Below, piece after piece: positions 12,425 to 51,316 of a stretch of DNA of 64,000 bases. The notes under the pieces are model-generated. The model made no database searches and was not told where the DNA came from. It saw nothing but the letters and a program-made list of their open reading frames with translations. Position 1 is the stretch's first letter. Each line of letters opens with the position of its first letter. Source of the DNA: Teichococcus coralli (GTDB lineage: Bacteria > Pseudomonadota > Alphaproteobacteria > Acetobacterales > Acetobacteraceae); NCBI RefSeq assembly GCF_009829925.1, contig NZ_SNVJ01000011.1:1-64000 (forward strand), given 5' to 3'. The position numbers were made by a program, and so were the translations under genes.

Positions 12425-12736
12425 ATGTCAAAGAAGTTCCTCGCCGACACGATCCAGAATTCCATCGAGATCACCGGCGTCGGCGCCAATGCCCTGGCCG
12501 GCGACATCATCGAGGCCATGAAGGCCGAGATCATCCGCACCGGCCGCTTCACCATCCCCGAGTTCGGCGCCTTCATGGTGCGCGAGACGCCGAAGCGCAC
12601 CGCCATGAACCCGCGCACCGGCGAGAAGGTGGCCGTGAAGGCCGGCGCCACCGTGCGCTTCAAGCCTTCCCCGGCGCTGCGCGAGGCCGCCTTCGCGGCC
12701 ATGAAGAAGAGCAAGCGCAAGGCCGCCAAGGCCTGA
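12425..12736 (+). CDS. HU-family DNA-binding protein
   Basis: This 103-residue histone-like protein has the HU/IHF core: an N-terminal helical dimer region (IQNSIEITGVGANALAGDII), beta-arm segments (GRFTIPEFGAFMVRETPKR) and the arm motif TAMNPRTGEKVAVKAG, then a Lys/Ala-rich tail (KKSKRKAAKA) as in alphaproteobacterial paralogues. It bends and compacts DNA. The tail and the isolated gene suggest an accessory HU rather than hupB. The 196-base gap to the divergent PRC gene must hold its promoter. Confidence 0.9.
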   Translation: MSKKFLADTIQNSIEITGVGANALAGDIIEAMKAEIIRTGRFTIPEFGAFMVRETPKRTAMNPRTGEKVAVKAGATVRFKPSPALREAAFAAMKKSKRKAAKA

Positions 12737-12743
12737 TTGCGCA

Positions 12744-12768
12744 GCCCCGCCGGCCGCGCCGGCGGGGC
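12744..12768. terminator. GC-rich hairpin between convergent HU and kinase genes
   Basis: There are perfect 11-base arms at 12744-12754 and 12758-12768 with a CGC loop, located six bases after the HU stop. It has no T tract. It probably ends the HU transcript. Confidence 0.5.
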
Positions 12769-12803
12769 GCCGCCGCGAAACAGGCAACGCCATCCCCTGG
12801 CCT

Positions 12804-14699
12804 TCAGGCGGAGGGTGGCTTCAGCAGCAGCGCGATGCAACGCGCCAGATCCGCCTGGCGGAAGGGCTTGCGCAGCACCGGAAAGCCTTCCGGCACCACT
12901 TCGGGATCGGCATAGCCGGTCAGCAGCAGGACCGGCAGGCCGGGGCGCAGCGCCTGTGCGCGCCCCGCCAGCTCGCGCCCCGTCATGCGCGGCATCGCCA
13001 GATCCGTGACCACCACACGGATATCGTCGCTCTTCTCCAGCATCTGCAGCGCCGCCTCGCCATCCGCCACCGCCACGGCGCGGTGGCCCAGATTGGTCAG
13101 GAAGGTCTCGGTCACGCCCCGCACGCCGGGATCGTCATCCACCACCAGCACGCTGACCGGCGCCACCAGGGGCGCCGCCGCGCCGCGGCATTCCGGCGTT
13201 CGGTCCACCTCCTGTTGCGCGCGCGGCAGGAGCAGTTCCACGGTGGTGCCCTCGCCCGGCGCGCTGACGATGGTGGCCGTGCCGCCGGACTGGCGGGTCA
13301 GCCCATAGACCATCGAGAGGCCGAGCCCGGTGCCGCGCCCCACCTCCTTGGTGGTGAAGAAGGGCTCGAAGGCCTGCGCCAGCACGGCCGGCGGCATGCC
13401 GCTGCCGGTGTCGGCCACCGCCACCGACACATAGTCCCCGGCGGCGAGGTCGTGCACCATGTCCTCGCCGACCGCGAGGTTGCGGGTGATGATGCTGATG
13501 GCGCCGCCTTCCGGCATGGCGTCGCGGCTGTTGATGCAGAGGTTGAGCAGGGCGAGGCCGAGCTGCTCCGGATCCACCAGCGCCGGCCAGAGCTCCGCCT
13601 CCAGCTGGTGCCGCAGCTCGATGCCCTCCCCCAGGCTGCGCAGCAGCAGGTCGTCCATCTCGCGCACGAGCTGGTTGATGTCGCTGGCGCGCAACTGCAG
13701 CTCGCGCTTGCGGCTGAAGCTCAGGAGCCGCTGCGTCAGGGTGGAGCCCCGCTCCGCCGCGGTGATGGCGTTGCGCACCAGCCGCTGCTGCCGCGGCTCC
13801 GCGAGCCCGGTATGCGTCAGCAGGTCCAGGCTGCCCAGGATGGCGGTCAGCAGGTTGTTGAAGTCGTGCGCCACGCCGCCGGCCATGGTGCCGAGCGCCT
13901 GCATCTTCTCCGCCTGGTGCAGGCGCTCCTCCAGCCCGCGCTGCTCGGTGGTGTCGTGCTCAATGGTCGCGAGATGGGTCACCCGCCCGGCGCCGTCGAA
14001 GATCGGGATGCGGTTGACCCGCACCCAGCGCGGCGGGGCGCCCTCGGCGCTGCGCTGCTCCGTCACCTCGGCGGGCCGGCCGCTCTCCATCACCGTCCGC
14101 TCAGCCGCCAGCAGCGCCGCGCCGGCCCCGGGCGGCAGCAGCCCCGCCTCGGCGCGGCCGGCGCACTCGGCCACCGTCCGGCCGAGCGCCGAGGCCTTCA
14201 CCGCGTTCAGCCGCACGAAGCGGCCGCCAACGTCCTTGAAGCTCAGCGCATCCGTCGAGGACTCGAGCAGCCCGCGCAGCAGCGCCCGCTCGGTGTCCAG
14301 CGCGCGGGCCAGGCGGCGGCGCTCGACGGCGTTGCGCACCATGCTGAGCAATGCCGCCGGTTCCCAGGGCTTCGGCGCGTAGCCGGCGATGCGCCCGTTG
14401 TTCACCGCGCTGATCACCGCCTCCAGGTCGGCGTAACCGCTGAGCAGCAGCGCCTCGGCGCCGGACACCTCGCGCGCGCGGGCGAGGAAGGCGTCCCCCG
14501 TCATCCCGGGCATCCGCTGGTCCGAGACGATCACGTCCACCGCCGGCTCGCGCGCCAGCAGCGCCAGCCCGTCGGCTCCGCAGGGGGCGGTCAGGACGCG
14601 GAACTCGCCCTCGAACAGGTCGGCGAGGGCGACCAGGATCTCCGGTTCATCGTCCACCAGCAGCAGCGTCGCCGGCGACAGCTCGGGCATGGGGTCCAT
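12804..14699 (-). CDS. Hybrid histidine kinase (REC-PAS-HisKA-HATPase-REC), last gene of the chemosensory operon
   Basis: It has 631 residues and is soluble. An N-terminal receiver (about 8-125, phospho-Asp in IVSDQRMPGMTG) precedes a PAS domain (about 145-265). HisKA follows with MQALGTMAGGVAHDFNNLLT, then HATPase with LNLCINSRDAMPEG, DTGSGMPP and GRGTGLGLSMVYG. A C-terminal receiver (about 510-630, VVVTDLAMPRMTG) ends the protein. It starts five bases after the upstream kinase and belongs to the same operon. The input receiver suggests control by phosphotransfer from CheA or another kinase. No DNA-binding or GGDEF output is present. Transcription order makes it the eighth gene. Confidence 0.88.
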   Translation of the reverse strand: MDPMPELSPATLLLVDDEPEILVALADLFEGEFRVLTAPCGADGLALLAREPAVDVIVSDQRMPGMTGDAFLARAREVSGAEALLLSGYADLEAVISAVNNGRIAGYAPKPWEPAALLSMVRNAVERRRLARALDTERALLRGLLESSTDALSFKDVGGRFVRLNAVKASALGRTVAECAGRAEAGLLPPGAGAALLAAERTVMESGRPAEVTEQRSAEGAPPRWVRVNRIPIFDGAGRVTHLATIEHDTTEQRGLEERLHQAEKMQALGTMAGGVAHDFNNLLTAILGSLDLLTHTGLAEPRQQRLVRNAITAAERGSTLTQRLLSFSRKRELQLRASDINQLVREMDDLLLRSLGEGIELRHQLEAELWPALVDPEQLGLALLNLCINSRDAMPEGGAISIITRNLAVGEDMVHDLAAGDYVSVAVADTGSGMPPAVLAQAFEPFFTTKEVGRGTGLGLSMVYGLTRQSGGTATIVSAPGEGTTVELLLPRAQQEVDRTPECRGAAAPLVAPVSVLVVDDDPGVRGVTETFLTNLGHRAVAVADGEAALQMLEKSDDIRVVVTDLAMPRMTGRELAGRAQALRPGLPVLLLTGYADPEVVPEGFPVLRKPFRQADLARCIALLLKPPSA

Positions 14700-14704
14700 C
14701 GTGC

Positions 14705-16456
14705 TCAGCGTTCCGCCTGCATTGGTACGCTGATCACGAAGGATGCGCCACCGGCCGGCCCGTTGCCGACGGAGATCGTGCCATCATGCGCCTGGATCAC
14801 GTTGTAGGCGATGGCCAGCCCCAGGCCGGTGCCGGAACCCACCGGCTTGGTGGTGAAGAACGGCTCGAAGATCCGCTCCTGCAAGCCCGGCGGCACGCCG
14901 GGGCCGGAGTCGCTGATCGCGATGCGGTAGATGCCCGCATCGTTCGAGGTCTCGATGGTGATGGTGCCCTCGGCCGGGATGGCGTCCGCCGCGTTGCTGA
15001 CGATGTTCATCACCACCTGGTTCAGCAGCGCGGGGGAGCAGCGCAGCTCGGGCACCGCCTCGTAGCGCCGCTCGACGGTGATGCGGTCGCCGAGCTTGTG
15101 TGCCAGCAGGGTCAGCACGGTGTCCAGCGCATCCGGCACGTTGACGCGCTGGAAGGCGTCGTCCTGGCGGGAGAACTTGCGCAGCTTCAGCACCAGGTCC
15201 TGGATGCGCCGCAGCCCGAGCGCCATCGAGCCGGAGCGCTCGCGGCACTTGGCGACCAGCGGTCGGGCGGCCGCGTTCTGCTCCAGCATCCCCTCCACCT
15301 GGCCGAGCAGCCGCGCCACCGTGCCCTGATGCGCCAGGATGAAGGCCAGCGGGTTGTTGATCTCGTGCGCGATGCCGGCCACCAGCTCGCCGAGCGAGGC
15401 CATCTTGGCGGCCTGCACCAGCTTGGTCTGGGTCTCGCGGAGCTGGCGGTTGGCTTCCTCCAGCTCGCCATTGGCGCGCGCCAGCGCCTCGGCCAGCGCT
15501 GCCTTGGCCTGCGCGGCGGCGGCCTCGGCCTGGGCGCGCTGCATGGAAAGCTCGCGCGCGCGCAGCTCGGCGGCGACGCGCCGGTCCTCGTCCTGCAGCA
15601 GCTTGCGGCGCAGCGCGGCGCGGATGCGCACGCTCAGCACCTTGGGTTCCGCCGTGGCGGGGATCAGGTCGTCCGCGCCCGCCTCGAAGACGCTGGCCAG
15701 CGTTCCCCGCCCCACCGGGCTGTCGGTGCCCAGCGCCACGATCTGGAAGCTCGCCCCCTCCCCGCCCGGCGTGCCGGCGCCGCGGAGCGCGTTGAGCCGG
15801 GCGCAGAGCGCGGCGCCGTCGAAACCCGCGCTGAAGGCGTTCAGCACGACGCAGTCCCAGGCCAGCGGCTCGGCGGTGACGGCGGCCAGCGCCGCCTCGG
15901 CGCTTTCCGCCGCCTCCAGCCGGTAGCCGTCGCGCCCGAGCAGTCCGGTGAGATAGGTGCGGTAGGTCAGGCTGTCGTCCACCACCAGCACCTGCGCCCG
16001 GCGGAAGGCCAGCACCCCTGGCGCCTGCTCGCCCGGCGCCGCCGCCGTGCGGCTGCGCAGCAGCGCGCGGATGCGCAGCAGCAGCAGGTCGTGCCCGGCG
16101 GATTTCGGCACATAGGCGTCGGCGCCGCTCTCCAGCCCCTGGCGCTCCAGGTCGCCTTCCTGCGCCTCGGTCAGCATCAGCACGGGAATGGCGCGGGTGC
16201 GGCTGTTGAGGCGGATCTGCCGCACCAGCTCGTCGCCGTTCATCCCGGGCAGGTGGTAGTCGGCGATCACCAGGGCGGGCAGCGTGCGGTTCAGCGCCTC
16301 CAGCGCCAGTTCCGCCGTCGCCGCGCGGGCGGCGGCGAAGCCTTGCCGCTCCAGCAGGCGCTGCATCTGCAGGGCCTGGGTGTCGGAGTCCTCGACCAGC
16401 AGGACCGGCGGCCCCGGTGGAAAGCTGGCGCTGTTCGGCAGGGTGGCGCTGTTCAT
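14705..16456 (-). CDS. Hybrid histidine kinase with two N-terminal receivers, the second degenerate
   Basis: It has 583 residues. The first receiver (about 17-135) keeps its phospho-Asp ([13 protein letters not shown]). The second (about 152-285, [16 protein letters not shown]) has Asn where Asp is expected ([13 protein letters not shown]) and lacks the conserved Lys, so it is a pseudoreceiver. A coiled coil (about 290-355, [20 protein letters not shown]) leads to HisKA ([20 protein letters not shown]) and HATPase ([22 protein letters not shown]). It overlaps cheB by four bases (ATGA). It probably receives phosphate from CheA on receiver 1 and controls its kinase core. Confidence 0.88.
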
Positions 16457-17514
16457 GGCCGCCGGCCCGCGAGCTGCACCAGGCGCGGCCCGATCAGCGG
16501 CAGCGGCAGGCTGAGGCTGGAGCCGCCCATGCGCACGGCCGCCGCCGGCATGCCATAGACCACGGCGGTGCTCTCATGCTCGGTGATGGTCAGGCCGCCG
16601 GCCCGGCGCAGCTCGGCCAGCCCCGCCGCGCCATCCTCGCCCATGCCGGTGAGCAGCACGCCAAGGCCCTGCGGCCCCACCACCTCGGCCACCGAGCGGA
16701 ACAGCAGGGTGGCGGCGGGGCGCTGGCTGGCCAGCGGCCGCTCGCCGCTGATCCGCAGCAGGCCGCCCGGCCCGATCAGCAGGTGGCGGTCCCCCGGCGC
16801 GACATAGACCCGCCCCGGGCGCGGCGCCTCGCCCTCCTGCGCGATGCCGACGGCAAGCGGCACCAGCCCGTCCAGCCAGGCGGCGAAGCCCTCCATGAAG
16901 GCGCTGCCCATGTGCTGCACCAGCAGCACCGGCAGCGGGAAGTCGGCCGGCAGCGCGCCCAGCACCTGCGCCAGCGCCGGCGGCCCGCCGGTGGAGGCGG
17001 CGATCGCCAGCAGGGCCGGCGGCTGCGGCGCCGCCAGCGCCTCCGGCCGCGCCGCCTGCGGCGGCCGCGCCGCCCCCAGGCTGCGCTGGCGGATCACCGG
17101 CACCTGGCTCATGATGTAGAGCTGCGTGCAGATGGTGCCGGCGATGCGCTCGTGGCCGCCGGTCTCCATGCCGACCGGCTTCTCCACCACCGACAGCGCG
17201 CCGGCGCGCAGCGCGTTCATCGAGATGCGCAGCGAGGCGTCCTCGACGCTGTCGGCGATGACGACGATCGGCGTCGGCTGCTCGGCCATGATCCGCCGCG
17301 TCGCCTCCAGCCCGTCCATGCCGGGCAGGCGGATATCCATCGAGATGACGTCGGGGCGGACGCGCGGCAGCTCGCGCAGCGCCTCCTCGGCCGAGGCGAC
17401 GGCGGCCACCAGCGTCAGGCGCGGATCGCGCGAGACGATGTGGGCGAGCAGCCGCCGCACCACCAGCGAATCCTCGACGATCATGACACGGACAGGATCG
17501 GTCGGAAGTGTCAC
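16453..17514 (-). CDS. cheB: Chemotaxis protein-glutamate methylesterase CheB (WspF-like)
   Basis: This 353-residue enzyme has an N-terminal receiver (about 8-125; DVISMDIRLPGMDGLEAT) and a C-terminal methylesterase. The catalytic triad residues are visible: Ser in AIAASTGGPPAL, His in VQHMGSAF and Asp in TGMGEDGAAG. It removes methyl groups from the MCP of this operon. The GTG start overlaps the cheA stop (GTGA), and its own stop overlaps the next kinase start. Position between cheA and the output genes equals that of wspF. Confidence 0.93.
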   Translation of the reverse strand: MTLPTDPVRVMIVEDSLVVRRLLAHIVSRDPRLTLVAAVASAEEALRELPRVRPDVISMDIRLPGMDGLEATRRIMAEQPTPIVVIADSVEDASLRISMNALRAGALSVVEKPVGMETGGHERIAGTICTQLYIMSQVPVIRQRSLGAARPPQAARPEALAAPQPPALLAIAASTGGPPALAQVLGALPADFPLPVLLVQHMGSAFMEGFAAWLDGLVPLAVGIAQEGEAPRPGRVYVAPGDRHLLIGPGGLLRISGERPLASQRPAATLLFRSVAEVVGPQGLGVLLTGMGEDGAAGLAELRRAGGLTITEHESTAVVYGMPAAAVRMGGSSLSLPLPLIGPRLVQLAGRRP

Positions 17515-19727
17515 AGCATCTGGCCAATGGTTGCGAGCAACTCGCGCTGGTCGAACTTCTGCTTGGTGATGTAGGCGCCGGCGCCCAGTTCAAGGCCGCG
17601 CCGCATGTCCTCGGAACTGGCTCGCGAGGTCATCAGGATGACCGGGATCGGCGCCAGCCGCGGGTCGTTCTTCAGCGCCTGCAGCAGGCTGAAGCCGTCC
17701 ATGCGCGGCATCTCGACATCGGCGACGATCAGGTCCACCAGCGCCTCGCCGCCGCGCAGCCGGTTCAGCGCGTCCAGCCCGTCCACGCTGAGCAGCACGC
17801 GGAAGCCCTGCGCCTCCAGGATGCTCTTCTCCAGCGTGCGGGTGGTGATCGAATCGTCCACCACCAGGATCGTGGCCGCCTCTCGCGTCTCCTGCGCCGG
17901 CAGCAGGCCGAGCCCGGCGGCGGCGAGCCGCCCCTCGTCGCGCAGCCAGCGGCCCACCAGCCCTTCCGGGCTCAGCACCAGGGCCGGCGCCGCCGTTCCC
18001 AGCGGCACGGCGCCCACCACGAGGTCGCCCTCCAGCCCGGGGGCATCCACCGCATCCACCATCAGCGTGCGCACGTCGTACAGCGCGTCCACCGCCAGCG
18101 CGCAGCGGCGCTCGCCGCTGCGCAGCAGCACGGCGGTGACATGCGCATCCTCCACCGGGATGGGGCTTGCGGCCTGGCCGAGCAGGTTTGGCAGAGCGAT
18201 CATCGGGGCGATAACGTCGCGTCCCCCCGCTTCGATGCGCAGAACAGGCTTGCCCTCGACGGTTTCCACCGCCGTCGTGCGCAGGCGCAACAGGCGCTCG
18301 ATCCCGCGGCTTGGCAGCCCGTAGGTCTGCCCGCCCGCGCCGAACAGCAGCACCGGCTCGCGGGCGGCGGAAAGCGGCACGGCGATCTCGATCTCGGCGC
18401 CCCAGGGGCGGCGCGGGCGCAGCGTGGCGCTGCCGCGCAGGCGGCGCGCCGTCTCCGCCACCACCGAAAGCCCCATGCCGCGGCCGGAAAGCCGGTCCAC
18501 CGCCAGGCTGGTGGAGAAGCCCGGCTCGAACACCAGCGACAGCACGCGGTCGGGCGGCGGCGGCGGCTGGTCGGCGGTGCGCGGCGGCAACAGGCCGCGC
18601 TGCACCGCCACCGCCTCGATGCGCTCCAGGTCCGGGCCATGGCCGTCGTCGAACACCGTCAGCACCAGCAGGCCGCCGCGCGTGGCCAGCCGCAGGCCGA
18701 TCTCGGCCTCCGCCGGCTTGCTCCGGGCGGCGCGCTCCTCCGGCCCGTCCAGCCCGTGGCTGACAGCGTTGCGCAGAAGGTGGGTGGCCGGGTCCTTCAG
18801 CGCCTGCAGCACCCGGCGGTCAACCTGCAGGTCAAGCCCTTCGAGCCGCACCGCGGCCTCCCGCCCGGCCTCGCGCACCAGCTCGCGAGCCATGCGGCCG
18901 AGCGAGCCGAGCACCGCCTCGGCGGGAACCAGGGTGATGCGCTCCACCCGCTGCCGCAGGGCGCCGAGGGCAGCCTCCACGTCCCAGGCGCGGCCGCGCT
19001 GCTCCCGCCCGAGCCGGGTCACGTGGCGCTGCAGGCGCGTGAGGTCCCGCTCGAAGTCGCGCGCCCGGCCACCGGCCGCCGCCTCGCGCGGCCGGGCCTC
19101 CCAGGCACGCCGGAGACCACGGATCTCCGCCTCCAGCGCGCGCAGCTCACCGCCGAGCACCGCCTGCCCCTCCAGCGCCTCGGCCAGCGCCTGCACGGCC
19201 CCCGCCAGGCTTTCCACCTGCCCGGCATTCACCCGCAGGTATTCCACCGCGGCGCCGCCCGCCTCCGCGGCGGCCGGCGCCTCCGGCAGGGGCGAAACCG
19301 GCAGGGGCGCCGGCGCCGCGGGCACGGCTTGCTCCGGCGGGGCCTCCTCGCGGCCGAGCAGCCGGTCCAGCGCCTGCTCGGCCGCCCGGGGCGGTTCGGA
19401 AGGCGCGCCGCCCTGCAACGCCGCCACATGGCCCTCGATGCCGTCCAGCCCGAGCTGGATCGCCGCCAGCGTTTCCGGACCCAGCGTCAGCCCGCCCTCG
19501 CCGACGCGGCTGAACACCGTCTCCAGCCGGTGCGCCATTTCCTCCACGGCCGGCAGGTCCACCGCCCGCGCCGCGCCCTTCAGGCTGTGCGCGCGGCGGA
19601 ACACGTCCCGCAGGTCGAAGGGCTGGCCGCTCTCCACCGCCGCCAGCGCGGCGCGGATGGCCTGCAGGTGCTCCTGATGCTCGATGCCGAAGGCGGCCAG
19701 CAACTCCTGGCGCAGGTCATCGCTCAT
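17511..19727 (-). CDS. cheA: CheA-type histidine kinase fused to a receiver (WspE-like)
   Basis: It has 738 residues. The P1 Hpt domain carries its phospho-His at residue 47 (RRAHSLKGAARAVD). A Pro/Ala-rich linker (about 110-200) and dimerisation region precede the P4 ATPase (HLLRNAVSHGLDGPEER, FDDGHGPDLE, GRGMGLSVVAET), a CheW-like P5 domain and a C-terminal receiver (ILVVDDSITTRTLEKS; LIVADVEMPRMDG). No P2 is recognised. The ATG at 19727 follows GGAGGG at good spacing. The frame stays open upstream through seven 15-base repeats (MAGWx)n, so a longer form from ATG 19865 is formally possible. Confidence 0.92.
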   Translation of the reverse strand: MSDDLRQELLAAFGIEHQEHLQAIRAALAAVESGQPFDLRDVFRRAHSLKGAARAVDLPAVEEMAHRLETVFSRVGEGGLTLGPETLAAIQLGLDGIEGHVAALQGGAPSEPPRAAEQALDRLLGREEAPPEQAVPAAPAPLPVSPLPEAPAAAEAGGAAVEYLRVNAGQVESLAGAVQALAEALEGQAVLGGELRALEAEIRGLRRAWEARPREAAAGGRARDFERDLTRLQRHVTRLGREQRGRAWDVEAALGALRQRVERITLVPAEAVLGSLGRMARELVREAGREAAVRLEGLDLQVDRRVLQALKDPATHLLRNAVSHGLDGPEERAARSKPAEAEIGLRLATRGGLLVLTVFDDGHGPDLERIEAVAVQRGLLPPRTADQPPPPPDRVLSLVFEPGFSTSLAVDRLSGRGMGLSVVAETARRLRGSATLRPRRPWGAEIEIAVPLSAAREPVLLFGAGGQTYGLPSRGIERLLRLRTTAVETVEGKPVLRIEAGGRDVIAPMIALPNLLGQAASPIPVEDAHVTAVLLRSGERRCALAVDALYDVRTLMVDAVDAPGLEGDLVVGAVPLGTAAPALVLSPEGLVGRWLRDEGRLAAAGLGLLPAQETREAATILVVDDSITTRTLEKSILEAQGFRVLLSVDGLDALNRLRGGEALVDLIVADVEMPRMDGFSLLQALKNDPRLAPIPVILMTSRASSEDMRRGLELGAGAYITKQKFDQRELLATIGQML

Positions 19728-19760
19728 GGGCAACCCTCCGGGCCATGCCGCCGAGGCCAT

Positions 19761-19865
19761 ATCCCAACCGGCCATGCCCCAACCCGCCATATCCCAACCG
19801 GCCATATCCCAACCGGCCATATGCCAACCGGCCATGCCCCAACCGGCCATGCCCCAACCGGCCAT
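19761..19865 (-). repeat. 15-bp minisatellite (MAGWx)7 upstream of and in frame with cheA
   Basis: Seven exact-length 15-base units occupy 19761-19865. Read on the minus strand, each is ATGG-C-GGTTGG plus a variable last codon, encoding Met-Ala-Gly-Trp-(Gly/His/Asp). All ATGs are in frame with cheA with no stop between. Changes in copy number would keep the frame. The unit could be a translated N-terminal extension, a stack of weak initiation sites, or a leader spacer. Confidence 0.85.
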
Positions 19866-19940
19866 GCCGCACCGGGCGGGGGGCGGCGGGCATCGGGGCC
19901 ATGGCGGGGCGGCGGCGCATGGGGCGGCGCATGGGGCGGT

Positions 19941-21617
19941 TCAGAAGCGGTAGCGGTCGGCCAGCCCGACCAGCCGCTCGGAAAGCTGCGACAGGTTGGC
20001 CGCCGCGGTGTCGAGCTGCCGCGTGCCGGCGGCCGTCTGCTGGCTTGCCTGACGGATGTTCTGCAGCGCGCTCATCACCTGCTCGATGCCGAGCTGCTGC
20101 TGGTTGGTGCTGGCGACGATCTGCTGGAAGGTCTGCACGCTCTCCTGGATGCGGCCGGTGATCTCGGTGATCGTGGTGTGGGTGGTGTCGGTGCGCCGCC
20201 GCCCCGCCGCCACGCGCTTCACCGCCTCCTCGGTGAGCATGACGGAGGAATTGATGCCGCGCTGGATGTCGCCCAGGATCGAGCGCACCTGCCCGGTGGC
20301 CTCCTTGGCCTGGTCGGCCAGCGTCTTCATCTCGGCGGCGACCACGGCGAAGCTGCGCCCCTGCTCGCCGGCGGCGGCGGCCTCGATCGCCGCGTTCAGC
20401 GCCAGCAGGTGGCTGCGCTCCGAGATGTCGTTCACCGTGGCGATGATCTCGCCGATCGCCTGGGTCTTCTCCGAGAGCGCGACGATGTTGCTGGCCACCG
20501 CCTCCGCCTGCTCGCGGATCTGCTCCATCGCCCGCACCGTCTCGTCCACCGCCTTCAGGCCGGCGGTGGAGGTCTGCGCGGTGGCCTGGGCGGAGGCGAT
20601 CACCTCCTGCGCGCGCTTGCCGATCTGCACGCCGGAATGGGTGATCTCGTCCACCGTGGCGGCGGTCTCCTGCACGGCGGCGAGCTGCTCCTCGACGCTC
20701 GCCGCCTGCTCCTGCGTGCTGGCGCGGATCTCGGCGGCCGAGGCGTTGAGGTTCTCGGTCGCCTCGCGGCTCTGCCGGGCGAGCTGGCGCAGCCCCTCGA
20801 CCATGGCGTTGAGCGTGACGCCGAGCCGTCCCAGCTCGTCCGGCCCGGTCACCGCCGCCTCGCCGGTCAGGTCGCCGCGCCCGATGCGCTCGACGAAGCT
20901 CATGAAGGTGGCCAGCGGCTGGGTGATCGAGCGGCGGATCAGCAGGGTGATGGCGATGCCGAGCACCACCGCCCCGATCAGCACCAGGATCACGGAGAAG
21001 CGGCTGTCCTGGTAGATCTCCCGCCCGCGCGCCTGGCCGTCGGCGATCACGGCGTTCAGCGTCTCCTGCACGGCCTCGGTCAGGCGGTCGAAGGCGGTGC
21101 GGCTGGCGACGATGGCCTCCCCGGCGGCGACGGCGGCGGCCAGGTCATTGGCGCGGATGGCCTGGAGCTGCGTCTGCGTGTGGTCGCGGATCTGCCGCAG
21201 CGCCGCGGCCGCCTGGTTCAGCTGCTGGCCGATGCGTTGCCAGCCGCCCCCCCGGTCGCTGGAGACCGCCTGCGCGGCGTTGCGGCTGGCGGCCGCCTGC
21301 ATCTGCTGCAGGATCGTCTCGCCTTCCGCCGCGGCGCGCGCCCAGGATTGCGACAGGTCGTCCGCCGGCACCTCGCGGCCGAGCCCGCGCAGCAGGAAGC
21401 GCGACAGGTTGCGGCTGCGGCTGTCCTGCATGGCGCTCTCGGCGTCGCGCAGCTCCATCAGGTGGCGCAGCATTCCCAGGTCCCGCGTGACGATGGTCTC
21501 GGTGGCCTGGGTGACGACGCTGATCTGGTTCAGGCTGTACAGGCCGAGCCCGATGAGCAGCAGCGTGATGGCCATGAAGCCGGCGAGGATTCGGTTGGCG
21601 ATGCTCAAGTTCGTCAC
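19941..21617 (-). CDS. Methyl-accepting chemotaxis protein (WspA-like)
   Basis: It has 558 residues. TM1 (about 9-31, ILAGFMAITLLLIGLGLYSL) is followed by a periplasmic four-helix-bundle-like region (about 32-205), TM2 (about 207-228, ILVLIGAVVLGIAITLLI), HAMP (RSITQPLATFMSFVERIGRG) and a signalling domain. The hairpin tip reads NDISERSHLLALNAAIEAAAAGEQGRSF (interrupted here), and FAVVAAEMKTLADQAKEAT follows. It is the only receptor of this operon. The GTG start overlaps the cheW stop (GTGA). A 213-base gap with the minisatellite separates it from cheA. Confidence 0.92.
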   Translation of the reverse strand: MTNLSIANRILAGFMAITLLLIGLGLYSLNQISVVTQATETIVTRDLGMLRHLMELRDAESAMQDSRSRNLSRFLLRGLGREVPADDLSQSWARAAAEGETILQQMQAAASRNAAQAVSSDRGGGWQRIGQQLNQAAAALRQIRDHTQTQLQAIRANDLAAAVAAGEAIVASRTAFDRLTEAVQETLNAVIADGQARGREIYQDSRFSVILVLIGAVVLGIAITLLIRRSITQPLATFMSFVERIGRGDLTGEAAVTGPDELGRLGVTLNAMVEGLRQLARQSREATENLNASAAEIRASTQEQAASVEEQLAAVQETAATVDEITHSGVQIGKRAQEVIASAQATAQTSTAGLKAVDETVRAMEQIREQAEAVASNIVALSEKTQAIGEIIATVNDISERSHLLALNAAIEAAAAGEQGRSFAVVAAEMKTLADQAKEATGQVRSILGDIQRGINSSVMLTEEAVKRVAAGRRRTDTTHTTITEITGRIQESVQTFQQIVASTNQQQLGIEQVMSALQNIRQASQQTAAGTRQLDTAAANLSQLSERLVGLADRYRF

Positions 21618-22168
21618 GCTCCGGAGGGTACGGCAGGCGCCATGAAGGGTTGCAGCAGCCGGTGGGGGTCGATCAGCCCGAGCAGGGCGTGCCGGCCGCC
21701 GGCCAGTTCGGGAGGGGCAAGGGCATGGCCGGTGACGGCCCGCTCGACCGGGCGGCCGGGGTCCGGCAGCGGCGCGACCTCCGCCACGGCGGCCACGCGC
21801 TCCACCCGCAGGGCGAAGCGGCGGGAGCCGGCCGCGCGCAGCAGCAGCACATGGCCGCCCTCCGCTTGCGGTGCCGCGCGGCCGAGCGCCAGCGCCAGGT
21901 CGAGCAGGCAGACCATCTGCCCGGCATGGCTGAACAGGCCGAGCACCGCGGGCAGCGCGCCGGCCACCGGCGCCCAGGCCACCGGCGGCAGCACCTGCGC
22001 GACCGCCTCCAGCGGCAGGCCGTAGAACTCGTCGCCGAGCTGGCAGGCCAGCACCCGCAGCCGGGTCCCGGCCGGGGCTGCCGCCCCGCGCGCGGCGAGC
22101 AGCCGCGTGCGCTGCTCCAGGATGCGCGCCGCCCGCTGGGGAGGAACGATGACGCCGCGGTTCGGCAT
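21614..22168 (-). CDS. CheW-like coupling protein (second copy; WspD position)
   Basis: It has 184 residues. The CheW fold spans about 40-175: LRVLACQLGDEFYGLPLEAVAQVLPP, LGLFSHAGQMVCLLDLALAL and HVLLLRAAGSRRFALRVERV (read as separate strands). An N-terminal extension of about 35 residues (PPQRAARILEQRTRLLAARG) precedes it. It links the MCP to CheA. Its ATG overlaps the cheR stop by one base (TGATG), and its stop overlaps the mcp GTG. Confidence 0.88.
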   Translation of the reverse strand: MPNRGVIVPPQRAARILEQRTRLLAARGAAAPAGTRLRVLACQLGDEFYGLPLEAVAQVLPPVAWAPVAGALPAVLGLFSHAGQMVCLLDLALALGRAAPQAEGGHVLLLRAAGSRRFALRVERVAAVAEVAPLPDPGRPVERAVTGHALAPPELAGGRHALLGLIDPHRLLQPFMAPAVPSGA

Positions 22169-23622
22169 CAGGAATTCCGCACCGGGCCAAGCGTCTCAAG
22201 GTGCAGCCGCGCCGCGGTGCGAAGCTCCTGCGCCGTCATTCCATCTCCCTCCTCCAGCGCCGCATCGCCCGGCAGGCTCATGGCGATGCGCGACGCCACC
22301 GCCAGGGCCCTGCGGCCCGCGGCGGCGCGGCCCTCATCTAGCAACAACAGCCCAAGCTGGTAATGCGCCATGATGAAGTCGCCGCGCAGGTAGAGGGCGC
22401 GGCGGAAGGCCTGCTCCGCCGCCGCCGGCCGGCCAAGGGCACGCGCCACCAGACCCTCGTAGTAGTGCAGCGCGGGATGCGTCGGCTCGACGGCCAGCCC
22501 GGCGCGGCAGGCCTCCTGGGCGCCGGCCAGATCCCCCCGGTCGGCCCGGAGGCGCGCCTCCTCCAGCAGCGCCCCGACCGCGGGCGCCGCCGCCGGCTGC
22601 GGCGCGGCAGGCCGGGGCGGCAAGGGGTGCGGGACGGGCGGGACCGCCAGGGGAGCCCAGACAGACGGCGCGACGGGCGGCGCGAAAGGCGGCGCGACGG
22701 GCGAGGCGGCCAGCGGCGCCGCGGCAGGCGGGGAGGATGGCAGCGCCCCCCCGCCACGCCGGTAGGCGATGGTGCCCGGCAGGTTCACCACCTCCAGGAA
22801 CCGCGTGAAGGCCGGGTTGGGCTCGGCATGGCCAAGCAGCATCCAGCCGCCCGCGTTCAGCCGCTCCGCCAGGGCGTGCACCAGCCGCTCCACCACCTCG
22901 GGATGGAAGTAGATGAGGACGTTGCGGCACAGGATCAGGTCGAACTCGGTGAGCTGCAGCGGCGCGCCGGCGTCGAGCAGGCTCAGCAGGTTGTGCCGCT
23001 CGAAACGCACCATCGCGCGGTGCTGCGGGCGCAGCGCCCAGTGGCGGCCATCGGTATCGGGGGTGAAGTCGCGCGCCACCTCCTCGGGCGGCAGGCTGCG
23101 CAGCGCCCAGCGGCTGTACAGGCCACGCCGGGCCACCTGCAGCACCGCCTCGTTCAGGTCGGTGCCGGTCAGGCTGATCCGCCATTGCGGCAGCGCCTCG
23201 CCCAGCAGGCGGCGCAGCAGGATGGCGACGGAATAGGGCTCCGCCCCGCTGGCGCAGCCGGCGCTCCAGATCCGCAGGCGGCGCGTCGCCGCGTTGCGCG
23301 CGATGATGTCGGGCAGGATGGTTCCCTGCAGCGCCGCGAACTGCTCGGCATAGCGAAAGAAGAAGGTCTCGCCGATGGTGATCGCCGCAACCAGCGCCGC
23401 CCATTCCTCCTCGCCGGCGACGGGGTCCTTCAGCCGCTCGACATAAGCCGCGGTGCCGGGAAGGCCGGTTTCGCGCAGCCGGCGCCGCACCCGTTCCCAG
23501 AGCAGCGTGTCCTTGTCCTGGTAGTAGAAATGCCCGGTACGGGCGATCACCATCGACTTCAGGCGCAGGAAATCCGCGTCCGGGATGAAGGCCGGGGTGA
23601 AGGGACCGGGCGCGCGGGGCAT
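22168..23622 (-). CDS. cheR: CheR methyltransferase with C-terminal TPR region (WspC-like)
   Basis: It has 484 residues. The CheR N-domain (about 10-90, FLRLKSMVIARTGHFYYQDK) is followed by the SAM-binding domain (about 95-270: GETFFFRYAEQFAAL, RIWSAGCASGAEPYSVA, LTGTDLNEAVL, FDLILCRNVLIYF). A Pro/Ala-rich linker (about 285-365) leads to TPR helices (about 370-470). It methylates glutamates of the MCP. A TPR tail on CheR is typical of WspC/FrzF-type alternative systems, not flagellar CheR. It is coupled to both flanking cheW genes by TGATG overlaps. Confidence 0.92.
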   Translation of the reverse strand: MPRAPGPFTPAFIPDADFLRLKSMVIARTGHFYYQDKDTLLWERVRRRLRETGLPGTAAYVERLKDPVAGEEEWAALVAAITIGETFFFRYAEQFAALQGTILPDIIARNAATRRLRIWSAGCASGAEPYSVAILLRRLLGEALPQWRISLTGTDLNEAVLQVARRGLYSRWALRSLPPEEVARDFTPDTDGRHWALRPQHRAMVRFERHNLLSLLDAGAPLQLTEFDLILCRNVLIYFHPEVVERLVHALAERLNAGGWMLLGHAEPNPAFTRFLEVVNLPGTIAYRRGGGALPSSPPAAAPLAASPVAPPFAPPVAPSVWAPLAVPPVPHPLPPRPAAPQPAAAPAVGALLEEARLRADRGDLAGAQEACRAGLAVEPTHPALHYYEGLVARALGRPAAAEQAFRRALYLRGDFIMAHYQLGLLLLDEGRAAAGRRALAVASRIAMSLPGDAALEEGDGMTAQELRTAARLHLETLGPVRNS

Positions 23623-24137
23623 CAGCCCGCGCCGGCCCATTCGGCGAGCCGGGCCTGGGCGTTCTCCCGCAGGGCCTCCAGGGCGGCCTTTTCCTGCGCC
23701 AGCAGGATGCGCTCCACCGCCAGCAGGTGCACGAAGCCTTCCGGCATCTCGATCTCGGCCACGGCGCAGCCATTGGGCGTGGCCTCCGGCGCCAGCGGCC
23801 GGAGCTGCCCCCGCGGGATGCGCTGGAGGTCGAGCGCGCGGTCCACCAGCAGGCCGAGGGGCCCTTCCCGCCCCGCCGCCACCACAACATGCCGGTACAG
23901 CGCCGCCTCCCCCTCCGCGCCTTCCGCCGCGAGCCCGAACAGCCGCATCAGGTCGAGCACCGGCAGCGCCCCGCCGCCGAGGTTCAGGAAGCCGGCGAGC
24001 GGGCGCGGCAGGCCGGGCGGCCGCCACAGCCGGGGCAGCGGCAGGATCTCCCGCACCTCGGCGCCCGGCAGCGCGCAGGTCCGGCTGCCAAGCCGCAGCA
24101 ACAGGTAAGGTTCGGCGGAAGGGACGGCGAGGCTCAC
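23622..24137 (-). CDS. CheW-like coupling protein (first gene of the operon; WspB position)
   Basis: It has 171 residues with a CheW fold starting near residue 10 (EPYLLLRLGSRTCALPGAEV), then GFLNLGGGALPVLDLMRLFGL and PLGLLVDRALDLQRIP. It heads the minus-strand operon. The 131 bases to the divergent hydratase gene must hold the operon promoter; no clear consensus is visible. Two different CheW proteins flanking a TPR-CheR is the Wsp gene order. Confidence 0.85.
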   Translation of the reverse strand: MSLAVPSAEPYLLLRLGSRTCALPGAEVREILPLPRLWRPPGLPRPLAGFLNLGGGALPVLDLMRLFGLAAEGAEGEAALYRHVVVAAGREGPLGLLVDRALDLQRIPRGQLRPLAPEATPNGCAVAEIEMPEGFVHLLAVERILLAQEKAALEALRENAQARLAEWAGAG

Positions 24138-25158: not shown

Positions 25159-26982
<1,824 letters not shown>

Positions 26983-47979: not shown

Positions 47980-48717
47980 TCATTCACGTTTTAGAGACGA
48001 AGCCCGCGCCTGCCGGGCCGCCTGCACCAGCGCCTCCCGGACCTCCTGCACCTCCCCGGCGGGCGCCGGGAAGTCGAGCCGGCAGCGGCGCTCCTCCGCC
48101 ACGAAGTCGCAGCCATCCACGTCCAGGCTCACCATCCGCCATTCGCCATGCGCCTGCCCCAGCAGGTTGACCACAATGTTTTCAACGGCTTCGGCATGAT
48201 CCTCGTTCATGTGCGCGCAAACTCCCGCCTCCGCCGCAGCGATCGCCGCCACCTCCCCGGGGGTTGGCAGAAGCTCACTCGCCCGCAGCCGCGTGGCCGC
48301 CGCGAAACCGCCCACCAGCAACGCCGCCACGGGTCGGACGCGCCAAAGGGCGAAGTCCGCGAATCCGGCATACGGCGCTGCATAGGGGTGCAGGGCCAGC
48401 CAGCGTGCCTTCAGCGCGGCCTTTTGATCGCCCTCCACCCGCTCCGCCACGCCGGTCACTGTCACGCGAGGAGCGGTCTGCGGGTTCGCCTCGGGCGCGT
48501 CTCCCTGCACCAGCAGGGCGCAGCGCGGCTCCCGCAGCAGCTGGCGGGTGTGTTCGGAAAGGCTGGAGAGCCAGAGCAGCAGCGAAAGGTCCGGCGCGGC
48601 GGCAGGGGTCACCAGGCTGGCGAAGGGCTGGCCCTCCTGCTGGGTGGCCAGCGTGGCGGCGCGCGCGCCACGCAGCAATGCGCGCGCCTGGCGAACCGGT
48701 TCGGCCTTGTCCATCAT
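47980..48717 (-). CDS. HugZ-like haem-utilisation/PNPOx-fold protein
   Basis: It has 245 residues. The N-terminal split-barrel of the pyridoxamine-phosphate-oxidase fold (about 8-150: [40 protein letters not shown]) is followed by a DUF2470-type domain with [14 protein letters not shown]. Relatives include HugZ, which degrades haem, and plant chloroplast proteins of similar fold. Haem degradation here is likely but not shown. It sits between pckA and chvI, divergent from chvI. Confidence 0.87.
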
Positions 48718-48827
48718 CCCTCCGAAGCCCTAATGCGCATCCGGCGGCCCGGCTTGCGCCACAATCTCCGGCCATCAGGGTGCCAGGGGGCCCCTCGCCC
48801 CACGGAACCGCGCTCCGCCGGACCTAT

Positions 48828-48902
48828 ATGCCGAATGGACCTATGCCCAGTGGCCCGATGCCCAGTGGACCTATGCCCGTTGGACACAACCCGAGTGGAC
48901 GC
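48828..48902 (+). repeat. 15-bp minisatellite upstream of and in frame with chvI
   Basis: Five 15-base units (starts 48828, 48843, 48858, 48873, 48888) resemble ATGCCCAGTGGACCT. Four begin with ATG. Read in the chvI frame they encode [25 protein letters not shown] and continue without stop into the chvI start at 48921. Unit length and ATG phasing match the repeat before cheA, though the sequence differs. Confidence 0.8.
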
Positions 48903-48920
48903 CTCAGGAGCTCCGCGCCC

Positions 48921-49621
<701 letters not shown>

Positions 49622-49622
<1 letters not shown>

Positions 49623-51316
49623 TGCCCGACGCCAGCGGCCCCGCCGCCGAGGCCCGCGCCCCGGCCCCGAAGGAGCGGCACCCGCGCAAGCGGGTCTCGC
49701 CGCTGCTGCGCCGCATCCTGCTGCTGAACATGATGGCGCCCGCCCTGTTGGCCGCCGCCCTGCTCTACCTCGACCAGTACCAGAACGGGCTGATCGCCGC
49801 CGAGGTGGAGGCGCTGCGCACCCAGGCCCGCATCTATGCCGGCGGCATCGCCGAGGCGGCGGTGCGCATCCAGGACGACCGCGCCGTGCTGGTGCCCGAC
49901 ACCGCCCGCCCGCTGCTCCGGCGCCTCGTCGAGCCCAGCCCCAACACCCAGGCCAAGCTGTTCGACACCACCGGCCTGCTGGTGGCCGACAGCCGCGTGC
50001 GCGAGGGCCAGGGCGGCGCCATTGTAACCGAGCCGCTGCCGCCGCCCGAGCACCGCAGCCTTCTCGCCGGCACCATCGGCGGCCTCTACGACCGCATTCT
50101 CGCCCTGCTGCCGCGCAGCGTCTTCGGCCCGCGCAGCGCCGATGACGACGTTTTCGTGGATGTCGGCCCGAATGCCGGCTCCTTCGACTGGCAGCCCGCC
50201 CTCGGCCCCGACCGGCGCGAGGAGCTGCGCCTGGCGCTGGAAGGCGGCGTGCGCCCTTATATCCGCCGCACCCCGGACGGCCGGCTGCTGGTCTCGGTGG
50301 CCGAGCCCGCCCGCCGCGGCAACCAGAGCATCGGCATCGTGCTGCTGACCCGCGAGGCGCGGCAGGTGGACGAGCGGCTGCTGGAGATCCGCTCCTCCGT
50401 CCTCGGCCTGTTCCTGCTGGCGCTGCTGCTGACCGTCGCCGCCTCGCTCTACCTGTCGCGCACCATCGCCTCGCCCATCCTGGCGCTCGCCGGCGCCGCG
50501 GCGGCCATGCGCCAGGGCAAGGGCCGCGCCGGCTCGGTGCCGCCACCTCTGCTGGAGCGGGAGGACGAGATCGGCGTGCTGGCGCGCGACCTGCAATCCT
50601 CCGCCACCGCCCTCTGGGCCCGCATCGACCAGAACGAGCGGTTCGCCGCCGACGTGGCGCACGAGCTGCGCAACCCGCTGACCAGCGTGCGCTCCGCCAT
50701 CGAGACGCTGCGCCGCATCGAGAACCCGGAGCACCAGAGGCGCCTGCTCGCCATCATCGCCGACGACGCCGTGCGGATGGACCGGCTGATCGCCGACATC
50801 GCCGACTCCTCGCGGGTGGACGCGGAGCTTTCCCGCACCGCCTCCGAGCCGGTGGACATCGCCCCCATCCTGCCGGCGCTGACCGAGCTGCACAACGCCA
50901 CCCGCAAGCCGGACGCGCCCGTGGTGGAGCTGGAAATGCCGTCCGGGCCGCTGGTGGTGCGCGGCGTGGAGGGGCGGCTGGTGCAGGTGTTCCGCAACCT
51001 GCTGGGCAACGCCATCTCCTTCTCGCCGCCCGGCGGCCATGTGCGCATGCGGGCGCGGCCGACCGGCGCCATGATGGAGTTCACCGTGGAGGACGAGGGC
51101 CCCGGCATTCCCGAGGCCAAGCTGGAAGGCATCTTCGCCCGCTTCTACAGCGAACGGCCGCATGGCGAGCAGTTCGGCCAGCATTCCGGCCTCGGGCTCT
51201 CGATCAGCCGGCAGATCGTCGAGGGCCTCGGCGGGCGCATCAGCGCCGAGAACCGGCGCGACGAGAGCGGCAAGGTGATCGGCGCGCGCTTCGTGGTCCG
51301 GCTGCCGCTGGGCTGA
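49622..51316 (+). CDS. chvG: Sensor histidine kinase ChvG
   Basis: This 564-residue membrane kinase has TM1 (about 29-50, LLRRILLLNMMAPALLAAAL), a periplasmic sensor region (about 55-250), TM2 (about 258-280, SSVLGLFLLALLLTVAASLY), HAMP (SRTIASPILALAGAAAAMRQ), HisKA (FAADVAHELRNPLTSVRSAI) and HATPase (FRNLLGNAISFSPPGGHV, DEGPGIP, HSGLGLSISRQIV). It is the partner of ChvI, and the TGATG overlap ensures co-translation. In relatives the periplasmic inhibitor ExoR acts on it; exoR is not in this window. Confidence 0.94.

What the first reader, a model, noticed from the sequence alone, without database searches (positions are those of the whole stretch)
12804..24137. Wsp-like chemosensory operon in which WspR is replaced by two hybrid histidine kinases
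Seen: eight minus-strand genes with overlaps or tiny gaps, in the order cheW, cheR-TPR, cheW, mcp, cheA-REC, cheB, hybrid kinase (REC-pseudoREC-kinase), hybrid kinase (REC-PAS-kinase-REC). Known: the first six match wspB-C-D-A-E-F components of Pseudomonas, where the output is the diguanylate cyclase WspR. Inference: here the array feeds a multi-step phosphorelay of stand-alone hybrid kinases, with no GGDEF or DNA-binding output and no flagellar gene. This would be a different output logic for an alternative-cellular-function chemosensory system.
Basis: partly seen in the sequence, partly recalled or inferred. Interest (0 to 1): 0.72.

Follow-up and report, generated by a model that had tools for sequence, protein, structure and literature searches.

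The report
Che3-type operon with two-kinase output
This is a chemosensory gene set of the kind that controls cyst formation in a related bacterium: its signal appears to be fed into a pair of sensor kinases, and many related bacteria that lack the sensor genes keep the kinases but have lost the site where the signal would enter.

Summary
The eight-gene operon is real. It is not a Wsp operon with WspR replaced: its CheA groups, at 100/100, with CheA3 of Rhodospirillum centenum and apart from Wsp CheAs, and relative G019 carries both systems. The first hybrid kinase (HK1) shares its REC-pseudoREC-coiled-coil part with R. centenum CheS3 (40% over 332 aa), whose REC1 is phosphorylated by CheA3 (PMC3868531). 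So the CheA-to-hybrid-kinase logic is published. What differs here: CheS3's PAS-HWE kinase and CheY3 are exchanged for a HisKA kinase and a CckA-like hybrid kinase (HK2), and the HK1-HK2 pair outlives the che genes. Of 150 Acetobacteraceae genomes 44 have HK1, 23 of them with this CheA (E<=1e-60). HK1's REC1 quintet is intact in 23 of 23 with it, 2 of 21 without, while HK2's N-terminal REC is intact in 43 of 44. All 13 inferred REC1 site losses lie on che-less branches, but only three independent che changes exist. CheA acting on HK1 REC1 is well supported; HK1 to HK2 is inferred; the final output is unknown.

The parts
23622..24137 (-). cheW (171 aa)
   Evidence: Pfam CheW 7.3e-20
22168..23622 (-). 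cheR-TPR (484 aa from MPRAPG)
   Evidence: Pfam CheR 5.3e-45; TPR matches below curated cut-off; start
21614..22168 (-). second cheW (184 aa)
   Evidence: Pfam CheW 1.2e-14, profile positions 2-98 of 138
19941..21617 (-). mcp, receptor with HAMP (558 aa)
   Evidence: Pfam MCPsignal 3.9e-32, HAMP
17511..19727 (-). cheA-REC (738 aa; H47, REC D670)
   Evidence: Pfam Hpt, HATPase_c, CheW, REC; residue numbers; trees
16453..17514 (-). cheB (353 aa)
   Evidence: Pfam CheB_methylest 2.3e-54 plus REC
14705..16456 (-). HK1: REC1 (D66) - pseudoREC2 (N206) - coiled coil - HisKA (H364) - HATPase; CheS3-type input
   Evidence: Pfam; 40% over 332 aa to CheS3 of the genome taken as R. centenum; PleD REC-REC in one stretch
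12804..14699 (-). HK2: REC1 (D60) - PAS - HisKA (H278) - HATPase - REC2 (D566); CckA-like kinase core
   Evidence: Pfam; NCBIfam CckA 3.4e-100, below cut-off
19755..19865 (-). 15-bp tandem repeat in the mcp-cheA gap

Best explanation
This is a Che3-type (R. centenum CheA3/CheS3 family) non-flagellar chemosensory operon with a two-kinase output. The MCP, the two CheWs and CheA-REC form the sensor array; CheR and CheB adapt it; CheA's own C-terminal REC is probably a phosphate sink, as proposed for CheA3 (PMC3868531). CheA phosphorylates REC1 (D66) of HK1. REC1 with the pseudo-REC2 works as a PleD-like paired-receiver switch, coupled by a coiled coil to the HisKA kinase of HK1. HK1 in turn acts on the N-terminal REC (D60) of HK2, which takes the place that CheY3 has in R. 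centenum, and HK2's CckA-like kinase passes the signal on to a distal regulator, unknown. Shown by comparison: common descent of CheA and of the HK1 input with CheA3/CheS3, and the dependence of REC1 conservation on CheA. Inferred: direction of phosphate flow, sign of control, HK1 to HK2, and the final output.
For: CheA clade with R. centenum CheA3 100/100, Wsp separate. HK1 residues 18-341 are 40% identical to CheS3, REC1 53%, and the match ends at the kinase; CheS3 kinase is HWE by Pfam, HK1 HisKA. Genome G623, unnamed, is taken as R. centenum because six published residue numbers all fit. REC1 quintet E-D-D-T-K intact in 23 of 23 family genomes with CheA, 2 of 21 without (5 of 21 if E is allowed at the second acidic place); phospho-Asp lost in 11 of 21, while HK1 His is intact in 44 of 44 and HK2 REC1 in 43 of 44. 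Che presence changes three times on the tree; 13 of 13 REC1 site losses on che-less branches, 49% of tree length. The same acyltransferase-ftsX-ftsE / HK1-HK2-hslVU flanks stand with and without the che genes between them. In a Hyphomonadaceae MAG the HK1 REC-REC part is fused straight to a PAS-HisKA-HATPase-REC kinase resembling HK2. In 14 further loci REC1 is E-D-D-T-K in 14 of 14; 13 of these have che genes including CheA in the same stretch, the 14th (L207) only weak che matches.
Against: No biochemistry. Only three independent che changes: the independent-pairs test gives median p 0.25 and cannot reach 0.05, and the 13 site losses are not independent of each other. Two che-less genomes keep an exact quintet and 10 of 21 keep the phospho-Asp. 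'Without CheA' means no match to this CheA at E 1e-60 and no che gene found beside the pair; other che systems there were not excluded. HK2 REC1 is only weakly similar to R. centenum CheY3 (29% over 82 aa, E 0.03), so the CheY3 place is by position in the scheme, not by homology. In G060 the che genes and the pair lie on different contigs and not next to each other in the stretches read, so linkage is not essential.
Confidence: 0.72

Rival explanations
1. A Wsp operon in which WspR was replaced by two hybrid kinases.
For: Same component list as Wsp up to CheB.
Against: The CheA tree puts Wsp-type loci (REC-GGDEF after cheB in L087, L192, L194, L195, plus L191) in a separate group, 100/100. The REC-GGDEF protein of L195 matches PDB 3bre at 9e-123 (that entry is WspR by recall) and the WspR-named fragments 3i5b and 3i5c at 3e-49 and 4e-51. 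G019 holds both systems and the gene order differs.
Confidence: 0.05
2. CheA feeds both kinases in parallel: HK1 REC1 and HK2 REC1 (or HK2's C-terminal REC) are all CheA targets, and HK1 and HK2 do not talk to each other.
For: HK2 carries intact receivers and sits in the same operon.
Against: HK2 REC1 stays intact in 20 of 21 che-less genomes (the 21st, L084, is broken), so its upkeep does not depend on CheA; HK2 was found directly after HK1 in 44 of 44.
Confidence: 0.2
3. HK2 runs a CckA-like phosphorelay: HK2 kinase to its C-terminal REC to ChpT/Hpt to CtrA or another regulator.
For: Kinase-REC part nearest to CckA among named NCBIfam families; Geminicoccus L095 has a REC-HK-REC-Hpt protein at the same place.
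Against: C-terminal REC absent in 9 of 43 readable HK2, with a separate REC gene downstream in 3 of the 9. In three small che-less genomes the CtrA-like regulator (label from recall) has E or A in place of the phospho-Asp (by reading). ChpT was not searched.
Confidence: 0.3
4. The operon only tunes the flagellar motor through the CheY of the other che cluster on contig C12.
For: The genome has CheY on C12 and FliG on C16.
Against: CheA groups with a studied member that controls encystment (PMC3868531); the C12 set has its own CheA; REC1 conservation ties CheA to HK1.
Confidence: 0.07

Closest known systems
Rhodospirillum centenum Che3 (CheA3-CheS3-CheY3, encystment; PMC3868531, text parts 1-4 of 7 read)
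   Same: Same che gene order, with cheB before the REC-REC kinase (L197); CheA-REC; REC1 active, REC2 without phospho-Asp (A191 there, N206 here); homologous REC-REC-coiled-coil input; same CheA group.
   Different: CheS3 ends in a PAS-HWE kinase and signals to the single receiver CheY3, whose gene precedes cheW in L197; here a HisKA kinase without PAS and a second hybrid kinase (REC-PAS-HK-REC), and no CheY in the operon.
Pseudomonas Wsp (WspA-F, WspR)
   Same: Same component list up to CheB: two CheWs, CheR-TPR, MCP, CheA-REC.
   Different: Wsp-type CheAs (from Cupriavidus, Burkholderia, Novosphingobium and two relatives; no Pseudomonas WspE was in the tree) form a separate group; mcp-first gene order and REC-GGDEF output.
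Azospirillum che cluster (L031, L032, L034)
   Same: Same order up to CheB and a REC-REC protein after it; same larger CheA group.
   Different: REC-REC stands alone with the second REC, not the first, keeping the Asp; it is followed by a HisKA-REC hybrid kinase.
PleD
   Same: HK1 residues 18-290 align in one stretch with PleD REC-REC.
   Different: Output is a histidine kinase, not GGDEF.
CckA
   Same: HK2 PAS/HK/REC core is nearest to CckA among NCBIfam models, after one generic kinase family.
   Different: Score far below the CckA cut-off (336 against 1000); extra N-terminal REC.
Hybrid kinases after cheB outside alphaproteobacteria (L099, L102, L108, L116, L169)
   Same: A REC- and kinase-bearing gene follows cheB.
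   Different: Those CheAs that were put in a tree (L099, L102, L116, L169) fall outside the Che3-type group; L108 was not in a tree.

Membership tests
Che3 (CheA3-CheS3) type system | CheA in one group with R. centenum CheA3 | tested here: met
   28 rows on one side of a branch, 100/100, in 200 of 200 bootstrap trees
Che3 (CheA3-CheS3) type system | CheS3-like kinase with REC1 active, REC2 inactive, encoded after cheB | tested here: met
   paper. Activity judged from residues only
Che3 (CheA3-CheS3) type system | PAS-HWE kinase part of CheS3 | tested here: not met
   HK1 is HisKA without PAS; CheS3 HWE
Che3 (CheA3-CheS3) type system | CheY3 single-domain receiver in the cluster | tested here: not met
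   Receiver scan of 525 open frames: the only one outside the operon is 24 kb away, in a 483-codon frame
Che3 (CheA3-CheS3) type system | CheA phosphorylates REC1 of the hybrid kinase | not testable with these tools
   Indirect: REC1 conservation follows CheA presence
Che3 (CheA3-CheS3) type system | Controls encystment | not testable with these tools
   No phenotype data
Wsp | CheA in the Wsp group | tested here: not met
   (no Pseudomonas WspE in the tree)
Wsp | REC-GGDEF (WspR) in the operon | tested here: not met
   Of 10 GGDEF places in the genome three show a REC, in a PleD-like, an Hpt-REC-REC-GGDEF and a longer protein; the loci reach 1.5 kb each side
ACF (alternative cellular function) class | CheR-TPR and multidomain response regulators in the cluster | tested here: met
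   (TPR below curated cut-off); feature taken from passages of PMC3447774
ACF (alternative cellular function) class | Formal class by the published chemosensory classifier | not tested
   Classifier models not at hand; PMC10782961 (passages) cites the R. centenum CheA3/CheS3 paper for an F5-class CheA with two CheW domains, so the formal class is open

The most novel reading that the evidence does not exclude
The HK1-HK2 pair is the conserved regulatory core and the six che genes are a detachable input cassette: lost in place about three times in Acetobacteraceae, after which the HK1 receiver that took CheA's signal decays while both kinases and the HK2 receiver stay intact. Across alphaproteobacteria one CheA-REC1 interface has been joined to exchangeable kinase/acceptor pairs (HWE+CheY3, HisKA+HK2, direct fusion to a CckA-like kinase).
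Probability: 0.6. Interest if true: 0.62.

Novelty: new variant of a known kind. Interest (0 to 1): 0.52.

Why it matters
It extends the CheA-to-hybrid-kinase logic from one studied species to a wider group (Pseudoroseomonas, Komagataeibacter, Methylobacterium, Microvirga) and gives a natural deletion series in one family: genomes with the whole che cassette, one in which only mcp and cheA were found, and 21 with none found but the kinase pair kept. That makes the question of which receiver a chemosensory kinase feeds directly testable.

Tried and rejected
Wsp descent: rejected by the CheA trees. A cognate response regulator just downstream of HK2: none conserved among the 15 loci read by eye; 26 of 46 loci have hslV-hslU downstream instead. 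The 121-aa ORF at 12428-12793 just after HK2 is not a receiver. The Hpt-REC-REC-GGDEF protein on C19 as distal partner: dropped, because it has a kinase-like gene (by reading) and a receiver gene directly upstream, and the small che-less genome G071, with only 7 REC matches at E 1e-6, shows nothing like it. Looking for the output among the regulators of small genomes (search of six genomes; 20 places in four of them fetched; read): types recalled as OmpR-, NtrX- and CtrA-like and some single receivers, no specific candidate. First named scan with the Indioceanicola CheS3-like protein found nothing. The ORF before mcp in L071 was suspected to be a cheW remnant, but Pfam gave no match.

Corrections made on the way: the CheR query was in the wrong frame and CheA carried the in-frame repeat; both were fixed from then on.
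Full report
OBSERVATION. The eight genes are present at 12804-24137 on the minus strand with the order and overlaps described, and Pfam confirms the domains, with HK1's HisKA and CheR's TPR below their curated cut-offs. Corrections: the MCP-CheA gap is 213 bp and holds a 15-bp tandem array, and CheA most likely begins at 19727. HK1 has phospho-Asp D66 in REC1, N206 at the matching place in REC2, and H364; HK2 has D60, H278 and D566; CheA has H47 and D670. Among 525 open frames in the window the only receiver outside the operon is at 48171-49619.

CONSERVATION. HK1 was found in 17 of 17 genomes of the genus (own included; 21 of 58 genomes in that call), with HK2 after it and cheB before it in 16 of 16 relatives fetched, four cut by contig ends. 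In a draw of 150 genomes of the family, 44 have HK1 (E 1e-50) and 24 have a CheA match (E 1e-60); 23 genomes have both, and the 24th (G160) has a CheA of the Wsp group followed by REC-GGDEF. HK2 follows HK1 in 44 of 44, in one of them (L084) in pieces. In 21 of the 23 the che genes stand next to HK1 on one stretch; in G025 the pieces fit a contig break inside cheB; in G060 the che genes and the pair lie on different contigs, with no che gene found beside the pair. Named carriers of the whole operon or most of it are Pseudoroseomonas cervicalis (plasmid), P. vastitatis, Komagataeibacter intermedius, Methylobacterium (M. bullatum, and six more loci) and Microvirga roseola. In a class-wide draw 6 of 387 genomes reach E 1e-80 with HK1, so it is patchy; of the four outside the family two (L204, L205) have the full operon, one (L206) has HK1 and an HK2-like kinase placed before the che genes, and one (L207) shows no HK2 match in the stretch fetched.

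DESCENT. CheA trees (59 rows; 44 rows, after I dropped 17 rows, among them the longest branches and near-copies, and added two) place the window with Azospirillum, Indioceanicola and R. centenum on one side of a 100/100 branch. Loci with a REC-GGDEF gene after cheB (L087, L192, L194, L195) and L191 form a second 100/100 group; L191 itself showed no REC-GGDEF gene in the stretch fetched. No Pseudomonas WspE was in the tree. The REC-GGDEF protein of G019's second cluster matches PDB 3bre at 9e-123 (titled only as a response regulator; WspR by recall) and the WspR-named fragments 3i5b and 3i5c. So Wsp and this system are separate and can live in one genome. Other CheAs of beta-, gamma- and deltaproteobacteria lie outside the Che3-type group; in several of them a longer REC-GGDEF protein (for example L098, L104, L109) or a hybrid kinase (L099, L102, L108, L116, L169) follows cheB, so a kinase after cheB is not confined to this group.

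THE CHES3 LINK. The R. centenum paper (PMC3868531, text parts 1-4 of 7 read) reports that CheA3 phosphorylates REC1 (D54) of CheS3, seen in vitro only with the CheA3 D663A form, that REC2 has A191 instead of Asp, that CheS3 (H453) phosphorylates CheY3 (D64), and that CheA3 has H49 and D663. HK1 residues 18-341 match its CheS3 at 40% (REC1 53%) and the match stops where the kinases begin: HWE with a weak PAS hit there, HisKA here. Indioceanicola (L033) has the CheS3 form and a receiver gene before its cheW. Azospirillum has the REC-REC part as a free protein. A Hyphomonadaceae MAG has it fused to a PAS-HisKA-HATPase-REC kinase resembling HK2 (34% over 659 aa; HK1 REC-REC part 44%).

THE NATURAL EXPERIMENT. 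In the 23 family genomes with this CheA the REC1 quintet is E-D-D-T-K in 23 of 23. In the 21 without it (no match at E 1e-60, no che gene beside the pair; other che systems not excluded) it is exact in 2 (L066, L075), or 5 if E is allowed at the second place; the phospho-Asp is lost in 11 and kept in 10. HK1's His is intact in 44 of 44 and HK2 REC1 in 43 of 44, so the pair is not decaying as a whole. HK1 REC2 keeps no complete Asp-Thr/Ser-Lys set in any of the 23, although 12 still have the Asp; outside the family REC2 can be complete (L206, L207). On a tree from HK1 kinase and HK2 columns only (48 rows: 43 of the 44, L084 left out, plus L010, L021, L024, L029, L030) che presence changes three times; with Methylobacterium as outgroup these read as losses. 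All 13 REC1 site losses fall on che-less branches, which make up 49% of the tree length (p about 1e-4 if uniform, counting each loss as not reversed and sites as independent, which they are not). The independent-pairs test has only three pairs (median p 0.25; for the phospho-Asp alone median p 1) and cannot be significant. Mean pairwise identity with che against without: REC1 0.70 and 0.48, REC2 0.39 and 0.49, kinase 0.64 and 0.59. Flanks are shared: acyltransferase-ftsX-ftsE on one side and HK1-HK2-hslV-hslU-sufE on the other stand with the che genes between them in some genomes (L059, L060, L063-L065, and L062 as far as fetched) and without them in others (for example L027, L066-L068); these flank names are from recall of the sequences. 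In L071 only mcp and cheA of the set were found, and REC1 is intact.

MECHANISM. Best reading: array to CheA to HK1 REC1 (comparative support plus precedent), HK1 to HK2 REC1 (inferred from constant pairing and che-independent upkeep of that receiver), HK2 onward to an unknown regulator. HK1's REC-REC aligns in one stretch with PleD, which suggests a dimer switch with REC2 as adaptor. HK2's C-terminal REC is missing in 9 of 43 readable copies, 3 of which have a separate REC gene downstream, so an obligatory relay through it is unlikely in general. Whether REC1 phosphorylation turns HK1 off, as proposed for CheS3, or on cannot be told.

OWN GENOME. Ten GGDEF places; three show REC domains: a PleD-like protein, an Hpt-REC-REC-GGDEF protein with a kinase-like and a receiver gene upstream, and a REC-GGDEF protein in a 739-codon frame. 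Six Hpt places at E 0.01, two of them in the two CheAs. A second che set (cheA, cheW, cheY, cheB, cheR by reading and BLAST) on C12 and FliG on C16.

LITERATURE. The rows listed by the searches (20 listed of 16,365; 20 of 25; 20 of 36; 20 of 33; 10 of 37; 12 of 92; 8 of 11) show no title or abstract start that describes this two-kinase operon in Acetobacteraceae or Methylobacterium. Of the papers I read parts 1-4 of PMC3868531 and passages of PMC3447774, PMC6159551 and PMC10782961. Two directly relevant papers (PMC4436063, PMC4273944) were not held. So absence from print is not established.

VERDICT. A real, conserved operon; a new variant of the known Che3 kind.

Noticed in passing
25159-26982 (-): A second, divergent RpoD-type sigma factor lies upstream of the operon; the genome has another, better-scoring one on C23. 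An rpoD-like gene also stands upstream of the operon on a P. cervicalis plasmid and in 7 of 16 genus relatives fetched (others may be cut or lack it).
   Followed up: partly
19755-19865: 15-bp tandem array in the mcp-cheA gap, in frame with cheA (MAGWx repeats).
   Followed up: partly
L029 (NZ_CP115854.1, 3911-24148): In Pseudoroseomonas cervicalis the operon and the sigma gene are on a 194-kb plasmid near repA.
   Followed up: no
L176, L182, L188: In three small che-less genomes the CtrA-like regulator (name from recall) has E or A in place of the phospho-Asp; one copy also looks truncated (by reading).
   Followed up: no
L084: In G151 the HK1 match holds a stop and HK2 lies in pieces: the pair seems to be decaying.
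   Followed up: partly
L095 3894-6503 (+): Geminicoccus flavidas has a REC-HisKA-HATPase-REC-Hpt protein after cheB, a phosphorelay in one chain.
   Followed up: no
L038 355-1980; L090 3075-7595: Hpt-REC-REC-GGDEF protein behind a kinase-like gene and a receiver gene, on contig C19 of the own genome.
   Followed up: partly
48171-51313 (+): A receiver-bearing frame followed by a HATPase-bearing frame, a separate two-component pair in the window.
   Followed up: no
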